Origin: Pseudomonadota bacterium
Lineage (GTDB): Bacteria > Desulfobacterota > SM23-61
Direction of reading: 5' to 3'
Assembly: GCA_018819135.1 (NCBI GenBank)
Contig: JAHJQK010000119.1
Location: 1 to 64,000 of the forward strand
DNA: 64,000 nt
Part shown: in pieces, positions 63,857-64,000 of the stretch
Position numbering within the stretch: the first letter of the stretch is position 1
Layout: every line of letters starts with the position of its first letter
Translations under genes and position numbers: made by a program
Notes under the pieces: generated by a model
What the model was told of the DNA's origin: nothing
The model's database searches: none
The model's input: only the letters and a program-made list of their open reading frames with translations

Positions 63857-64000
63857 ATGCCTAAAGAACGTTTAATCGTAATCGGCGGAAATGCCGCCGG
63901 AATGAGCGCAGCCTCCCAGGCTGGCCGGCAGCGTCCGGAGCTGGAAATCATCGCCTTGGAACAGAGCCCCCACACCTCTTATTCCGCCTGAGCAATGCCC
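63857..64000 (+). CDS. CoA-disulfide reductase-like FAD/NAD(P) oxidoreductase, partial, with in-frame TGA at the catalytic Cys position (candidate selenocysteine)
   Basis: MPKERLIVIGGNAAGMSAASQAGRQRPELEIIALEQSPHTSYSA-[TGA 63989-63991]-AMP...; runs off the window. Confidence 0.65.

What the first reader, a model, noticed from the sequence alone, without database searches (positions are those of the whole stretch)
63857..64000. Candidate selenoprotein: in-frame TGA replaces the catalytic cysteine of a CoA-disulfide-reductase-like flavoenzyme
The sequence reads ATG (63857) through MPKERLIVIGGNAAGMSAASQAGRQRPELEIIALEQSPHTSYSA, then TGA (63989-63991), then GCA ATG CCC (A-M-P). In CoADR/NADH oxidase-type enzymes the N-terminal GG-x-AAGMSAA FAD motif is followed at about residue 43 by the single redox-active Cys in an S[YF]xxCxxPY context. 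Here the TGA is codon 45 in SYSA-U-AMP, exactly at the Cys. A random nonsense mutation would not be expected to hit this codon while both sides keep the motif. UGA decoded as Sec would be a chemically sensible Cys-to-Sec substitution. ORF callers would discard this gene as a 44-aa fragment.
Basis: partly seen in the sequence, partly recalled or inferred. Interest (0 to 1): 0.9.

Follow-up and report, generated by a model that had tools for sequence, protein, structure and literature searches.

The report
Deleted copy of known selenocysteine flavoenzyme
The in-frame stop codon really is a selenocysteine codon at the active site of an already known bacterial selenium-containing flavoenzyme family, but the copy in this draft genome has lost its middle 266 codons and is probably a broken gene or, less likely, an assembly error.

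Summary
The TGA at 63989-63991 is real and sits at the redox-active Cys of a CoA-disulfide-reductase/NADH-oxidase-type flavoenzyme. Beyond the window the frame continues with AMPYYIGRVVDD. Three same-genus genomes carry the full ~450-codon gene with TGA at the same codon. Sec-type relatives share a hairpin after the UGA (8 bp, GGGU-type loop, 22 nt downstream) with compensatory changes; Cys-type relatives lack it. The genome has selA, selB, a UCA tRNA-Sec and a selD with its own in-frame TGA. Selenocysteine is well supported for the family. Two corrections. First, the family is not new: it was listed as the selenoprotein 'NADH oxidase' of Geobacter metallireducens in 2006 and is tabulated as 'FAD-dependent oxidoreductase (CoA-disulfide reductase)' in 2022 and 2026 reviews. 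Second, this copy is not intact: a 798-bp in-frame deletion at a 4-bp microhomology (TCCA) removes codons 81-346, most of the FAD- and all of the NAD(P)H-binding region, leaving 184 codons. The missing part is nowhere else in the assembly. Most likely a recent deletion pseudogene; an assembly error is not excluded. Low interest.

The parts
63857..64000 (+). 5' part of the internally deleted Sec flavoenzyme gene; it continues to C94:64411 (184 codons plus stop), beyond the window
   Evidence: orthologue in G001-G003
63989..63991 (+). in-frame TGA, read as the selenocysteine codon (residue 45), at the position of the redox-active Cys
   Evidence: TGA conserved in 36 loci; aligns with the Cys of solved homologues
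63841..63846 (+). AAGGAG, likely ribosome-binding site, 10 bases before the ATG
   Evidence: read directly from the sequence
63992..64000 (+). first bases of the stretch leading to the SECIS-like hairpin; the hairpin itself lies at C94:64006-64025 (loop GGGU 64014-64017), outside the window
62164..63762 (+). serA, phosphoglycerate dehydrogenase, upstream neighbour; the end of it and the intergenic stretch are shared with G001, showing that the deleted gene is in its usual place

Best explanation
The TGA is a selenocysteine codon inherited from an intact selenoprotein of the known FAD-dependent NADH oxidase/CoA-disulfide-reductase-like family. In intact relatives SelB with Sec-tRNA-Sec would decode the UGA with the help of the hairpin that follows it, and the selenolate would replace the single redox-active cysteine that takes electrons from NAD(P)H via FAD and reduces a disulfide or related substrate (this chemistry is inferred from homologues). 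In this genome the gene has suffered a 798-bp in-frame deletion at a 4-bp microhomology that removes codons 81-346. The remaining product would be the first 80 residues fused to the C-terminal dimerisation domain and is almost surely inactive as a flavoenzyme: a recent pseudogene, or a deletion variant carried by part of the population. Shown by sequence: TGA position, hairpin covariation, machinery, deletion. Inferred: actual Sec insertion, enzyme chemistry, loss of function.
For: Same TGA in intact same-genus genes of about 450 codons and in 36 loci overall. Hairpin covariation in Sec forms, absent in Cys forms. selA, selB, tRNA-Sec and selD present, and this tRNA and SelB recur in near relatives. 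Deletion: C94 aligns to G001 on both sides with 798 bp skipped and a TCCA overlap; the missing part is not elsewhere in the genome; the end of serA is shared upstream.
Against: No Sec incorporation has been measured. The hairpin of this single sequence does not fold better than shuffles (z 0.16). The genome is a draft MAG, 8.5% contaminated, so the deletion could be an assembly error. Both remaining halves look constrained relative to G001, which is expected for a recent deletion but would also fit a retained function.
Confidence: 0.82

Rival explanations
1. The organism carries an intact Sec enzyme and the 798-bp gap is an assembly or strain-mixture artefact of the draft genome.
For: All three same-genus relatives have the intact gene. 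The assembly is a contaminated draft. Scattered internally deleted forms of this family occur on other metagenome contigs.
Against: The overlap at the junction is only 4 bp, shorter than an assembler word; both halves diverge equally from G001 (dS 0.35 and 0.29); the missing 798 bp is nowhere else in the assembly, not even as a fragment.
Confidence: 0.14
2. The 184-codon form is a functional mini-selenoprotein kept by selection.
For: The deletion is in frame, the UGA and hairpin are intact, and the N-terminal 80 codons show 1 amino-acid-changing against 16 synonymous differences from G001. One other, Cys-type protein of 186 aa has nearly the same architecture (P0010).
Against: Most of the FAD-binding and all of the NAD(P)H-binding part is missing. 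Other short forms have scattered junctions and are clusters of one or two sequences, so there is no conserved mini-family. The constraint can predate the deletion.
Confidence: 0.03
3. The TGA is an ordinary nonsense mutation or sequencing error in a Cys enzyme.
For: Cys-type homologues are common, and this copy is damaged anyway.
Against: TGA is at the same codon in all intact close relatives and in many distant ones, with a covarying hairpin only in the TGA forms.
Confidence: 0.01

Closest known systems
Bacterial selenoprotein family 'NADH oxidase' / 'FAD-dependent oxidoreductase (CoA-disulfide reductase)', COG0446, example WP_011365774.1 (PMC1794560, PMC9312934, PMC13188914)
   Same: Sec in place of the redox-active Cys of an NADH-oxidase/CoADR-type flavoenzyme, in the deltaproteobacterial lineages; the published motif UGxP matches U-[GA]-x-P here.
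   Different: This copy lacks codons 81-346. I could not align it with the listed accession itself; the match rests on family name, motif and the Geobacteraceae relatives found.
CoA-disulfide reductase / NADH oxidase flavoenzymes with Cys (solved examples 6ruz, 3cgb, 1yqz, 4fx9)
   Same: The full-length G001 relative aligns end to end with 6ruz and 3cgb, and its Sec falls on the Cys of the S-x-x-C-x-x-P-Y motif.
   Different: Sec instead of Cys. The relative scores 448 bits against TIGR03385, below the 578.8 cut-off, so the CoA-disulfide substrate is not established.

Membership tests
Sec-containing FAD-dependent oxidoreductase (NADH oxidase/CoADR-like) selenoproteins | in-frame UGA at the position of the redox-active Cys | tested here: met
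Sec-containing FAD-dependent oxidoreductase (NADH oxidase/CoADR-like) selenoproteins | bacterial SECIS hairpin shortly after the UGA with G in the apical loop | tested here: met
   8-bp stem, GGGU loop 22 nt after the UGA; covariation in 12 Sec sequences, none in 21 Cys sequences; not significant from the single sequence
Sec-containing FAD-dependent oxidoreductase (NADH oxidase/CoADR-like) selenoproteins | Sec machinery selA, selB, selC, selD in the genome | tested here: met
Sec-containing FAD-dependent oxidoreductase (NADH oxidase/CoADR-like) selenoproteins | complete FAD, NAD(P)H and dimerisation domains | tested here: not met
   codons 81-346 deleted in this copy; met in the same-genus relatives
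Sec-containing FAD-dependent oxidoreductase (NADH oxidase/CoADR-like) selenoproteins | selenocysteine actually incorporated | not testable with these tools
   needs 75Se labelling or mass spectrometry
CoA-disulfide reductase (NCBIfam TIGR03385 equivalog) | score above the curated cut-off of 578.8 bits | tested here: not met
   448 bits for the intact G001 relative, 170.9 for this copy
CoA-disulfide reductase (NCBIfam TIGR03385 equivalog) | NAD(P)H-dependent reduction of CoA disulfide | not testable with these tools
   needs an enzyme assay

The most novel reading that the evidence does not exclude
The 184-codon form is a stable, expressed mini-selenoprotein that has kept only the Sec-bearing N-terminal segment and the dimerisation domain and has taken on a new role.
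Probability: 0.03. Interest if true: 0.5.

Novelty: new member of a known kind. Interest (0 to 1): 0.2.

Why it matters
It confirms that an in-frame UGA at a catalytic Cys is a trustworthy sign of Sec in this phylum, and that ORF callers cut such genes: the protein collection holds only the 138-aa piece after the UGA. Around it, the family shows repeated Sec/Cys exchange and two different SECIS layouts in one enzyme family. The window's own copy adds little, because it is deleted.

Tried and rejected
A nonsense mutation as the origin of the TGA: rejected by the TGA conserved in intact relatives. A second intact copy, or the missing middle elsewhere in the genome: not found. A conserved mini-family of about 185 aa: length-restricted searches gave short forms in clusters of one or two sequences with scattered junctions. 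Hairpin significance from the single sequence: not significant, so comparative evidence was used. A paper search for biochemistry of the Sec form gave surveys and reviews only.

Full report
Observation. The reading frame from ATG 63857 through MPKERLIVIGGNAAGMSAASQAGRQRPELEIIALEQSPHTSYSA to TGA 63989-63991 and then AMP is exactly as reported. The window is the first 64,000 bases of contig C94 (69,211 bases) of a 4.43-Mb draft genome in 222 contigs, 94% complete and 8.5% contaminated. A same-genus genome (G003) appears to be the Thermodesulfobacteriota MAG 'Yes70-24': its 3,789-base contig with this gene has the length and gene of JASEHN010000399.1; the identity is inferred.

Continuation. Beyond the window the frame runs on past the TGA as UAMPYYIGRVVDDAQSLVVRSPEAFRKQGIDARIF, then jumps to QEKELQQLGLSYVHAKI... 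and ends at TGA C94:64409-64411 after 184 codons. Pfam sees only the start of Pyr_redox_2 and most of a Pyr_redox_dim domain.

Relatives. A search of 199 related genomes found the N- and C-terminal parts as two matches about 1 kb apart in the three same-genus genomes, each with exactly one TGA in the N-terminal part. Reading these loci through gives intact enzymes of about 450 codons with the motif SYSA-U-[GA]MPYYIGRVVDD. A wider reading gave 58 loci, 36 of them (the window's included) with TGA at this codon; these loci were partly chosen for the TGA, so this is not a frequency. A scan of named genomes gave 15 TGA forms among 78 readable loci, including Geobacteraceae, Desulfobulbaceae and Syntrophaceae; two of them look like records already seen under genome handles. 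The Sec residue aligns with the Cys of solved CoA-disulfide reductases and NADH oxidases.

SECIS. After the UGA the window's group keeps an 8-bp stem with a GGGU-type loop, 22 nt downstream. In 12 sequences 97.9% of cells are paired; three of eight pairs change on both sides (C-G to U-A, A-U to G-C, A-U to C-G); the number of doubly changed cells and the covariation score exceed all 500 shuffles. In 21 Cys-type homologues the same positions pair in 48% of cells, no more than shuffled. A second Sec group (motif U-x-x-x-YYIGDV, mostly UxxPYYIGDV) has a different hairpin, a stem of 8-10 bp with a three-base GG-N loop 18 nt after the UGA, and it also covaries; the Cys homologues do not at those positions. 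For the window's sequence alone the folding energy is not significant.

Machinery. selA (C106, 637 bits), selB (C107, 369 bits), tRNA-Sec with anticodon TCA (C46, 73.7 bits) and selD (C34, 378 bits, with one in-frame TGA) are present. This tRNA recurs at 86-98% identity in six of the seven near relatives searched, and this SelB at 76-95% in all seven, so the set belongs to the lineage and is not contamination.

Deletion. C94:63701-64095 aligns with G001 without a gap over the end of serA, the intergenic stretch and the 5' part of the gene; the alignment resumes at C94:64092 with 798 bp of G001 skipped. The overlap of the two matches is TCCA (G001 5' site ATCTTCCATAGG, 3' site GGGCTCCAGGAA, junction here ATCTTCCAGGAA). 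The loss is 266 codons, in frame, residues 81-346. No other contig holds the missing part; the next best matches are paralogues near 30% identity. Both halves show similar divergence from G001 (dS 0.35 and 0.29) and low dN/dS, which fits one locus and a recent deletion but cannot show selection on the short form. The overlap is shorter than an assembler word, which speaks against a simple assembly collapse; misassembly remains possible.

Is the short form a family? Two length-restricted searches found one other protein with a nearly identical architecture (P0010, 186 aa, Cys-type, 61% identical) and several with different junctions, each in a cluster of one or two sequences. This looks like scattered deletions or assembly errors, not a conserved mini-protein. 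The identical 138-aa piece is recorded on two contigs, the longest of 69,213 bases; these may be two versions of the same assembly, so this is not independent confirmation of the deletion.

Known or new. The 2006 survey of bacterial selenoproteins lists 'NADH oxidase' with Sec in Geobacter metallireducens (PMC1794560). Reviews of 2022 and 2026 tabulate 'FAD-dependent oxidoreductase (CoA-disulfide reductase)' as a prokaryotic selenoprotein, the latter with motif UGxP (PMC9312934, PMC13188914). The finding therefore belongs to a known kind. The intact relative scores below the cut-off of the CoA-disulfide reductase equivalog (448 against 578.8 bits), so the substrate is open.

Evolution. On a tree of 91 sequences the Cys label needs 8 changes, at least 7 of them forced by well-supported branches. 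The two SECIS layouts occupy separate parts of the tree, and three further Sec forms with neither layout sit singly among Cys forms. The root is for drawing only, so gains and losses are not told apart.

Noticed in passing
G000 contig C222: tRNA-Sec 3118-3207, selB 3294-5189, selD 6561-7487 (loci L004, L012, L059): A second, clustered selC-selB-selD set. Its SelB is only 34% identical to the lineage's own on C107 and was not seen in the near relatives; contamination or horizontal transfer, not decided.
   Followed up: partly
L040, L043, L046, L047, L065-L076, L077, L078, L081-L083, L087 (codons after the Sec TGA): A second Sec group of the same enzyme family has a differently placed hairpin (three-base GG-N loop, 18 nt after the UGA). 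In it the last base of a Tyr codon (TAC/TAT) covaries with a Val/Ile codon (GTA/ATA), so the protein residue appears to follow the RNA stem.
   Followed up: partly
L079, L080, L085: Three Sec-type members that lie singly among Cys-type enzymes in the tree and show neither of the two hairpin layouts; possibly separate Cys-to-Sec changes.
   Followed up: no
L002:752-1391 (C94:64452-65091), minus strand, beyond the window: PIN-domain toxin and MazE-type antitoxin gene pair directly downstream of the deleted gene.
   Followed up: no
L002:2728-2978 and 5241-5330 (C94:66428-66678 and 68941-69030), minus strand, beyond the window: Pieces of group II introns near the contig end.
   Followed up: no
proteins P0010, P0122, P0124, P0125, P0126, P0167: Internally deleted, in-frame short forms of this flavoenzyme family turn up now and then among metagenome proteins, with different junctions; real deletions or assembly errors.
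   Followed up: partly
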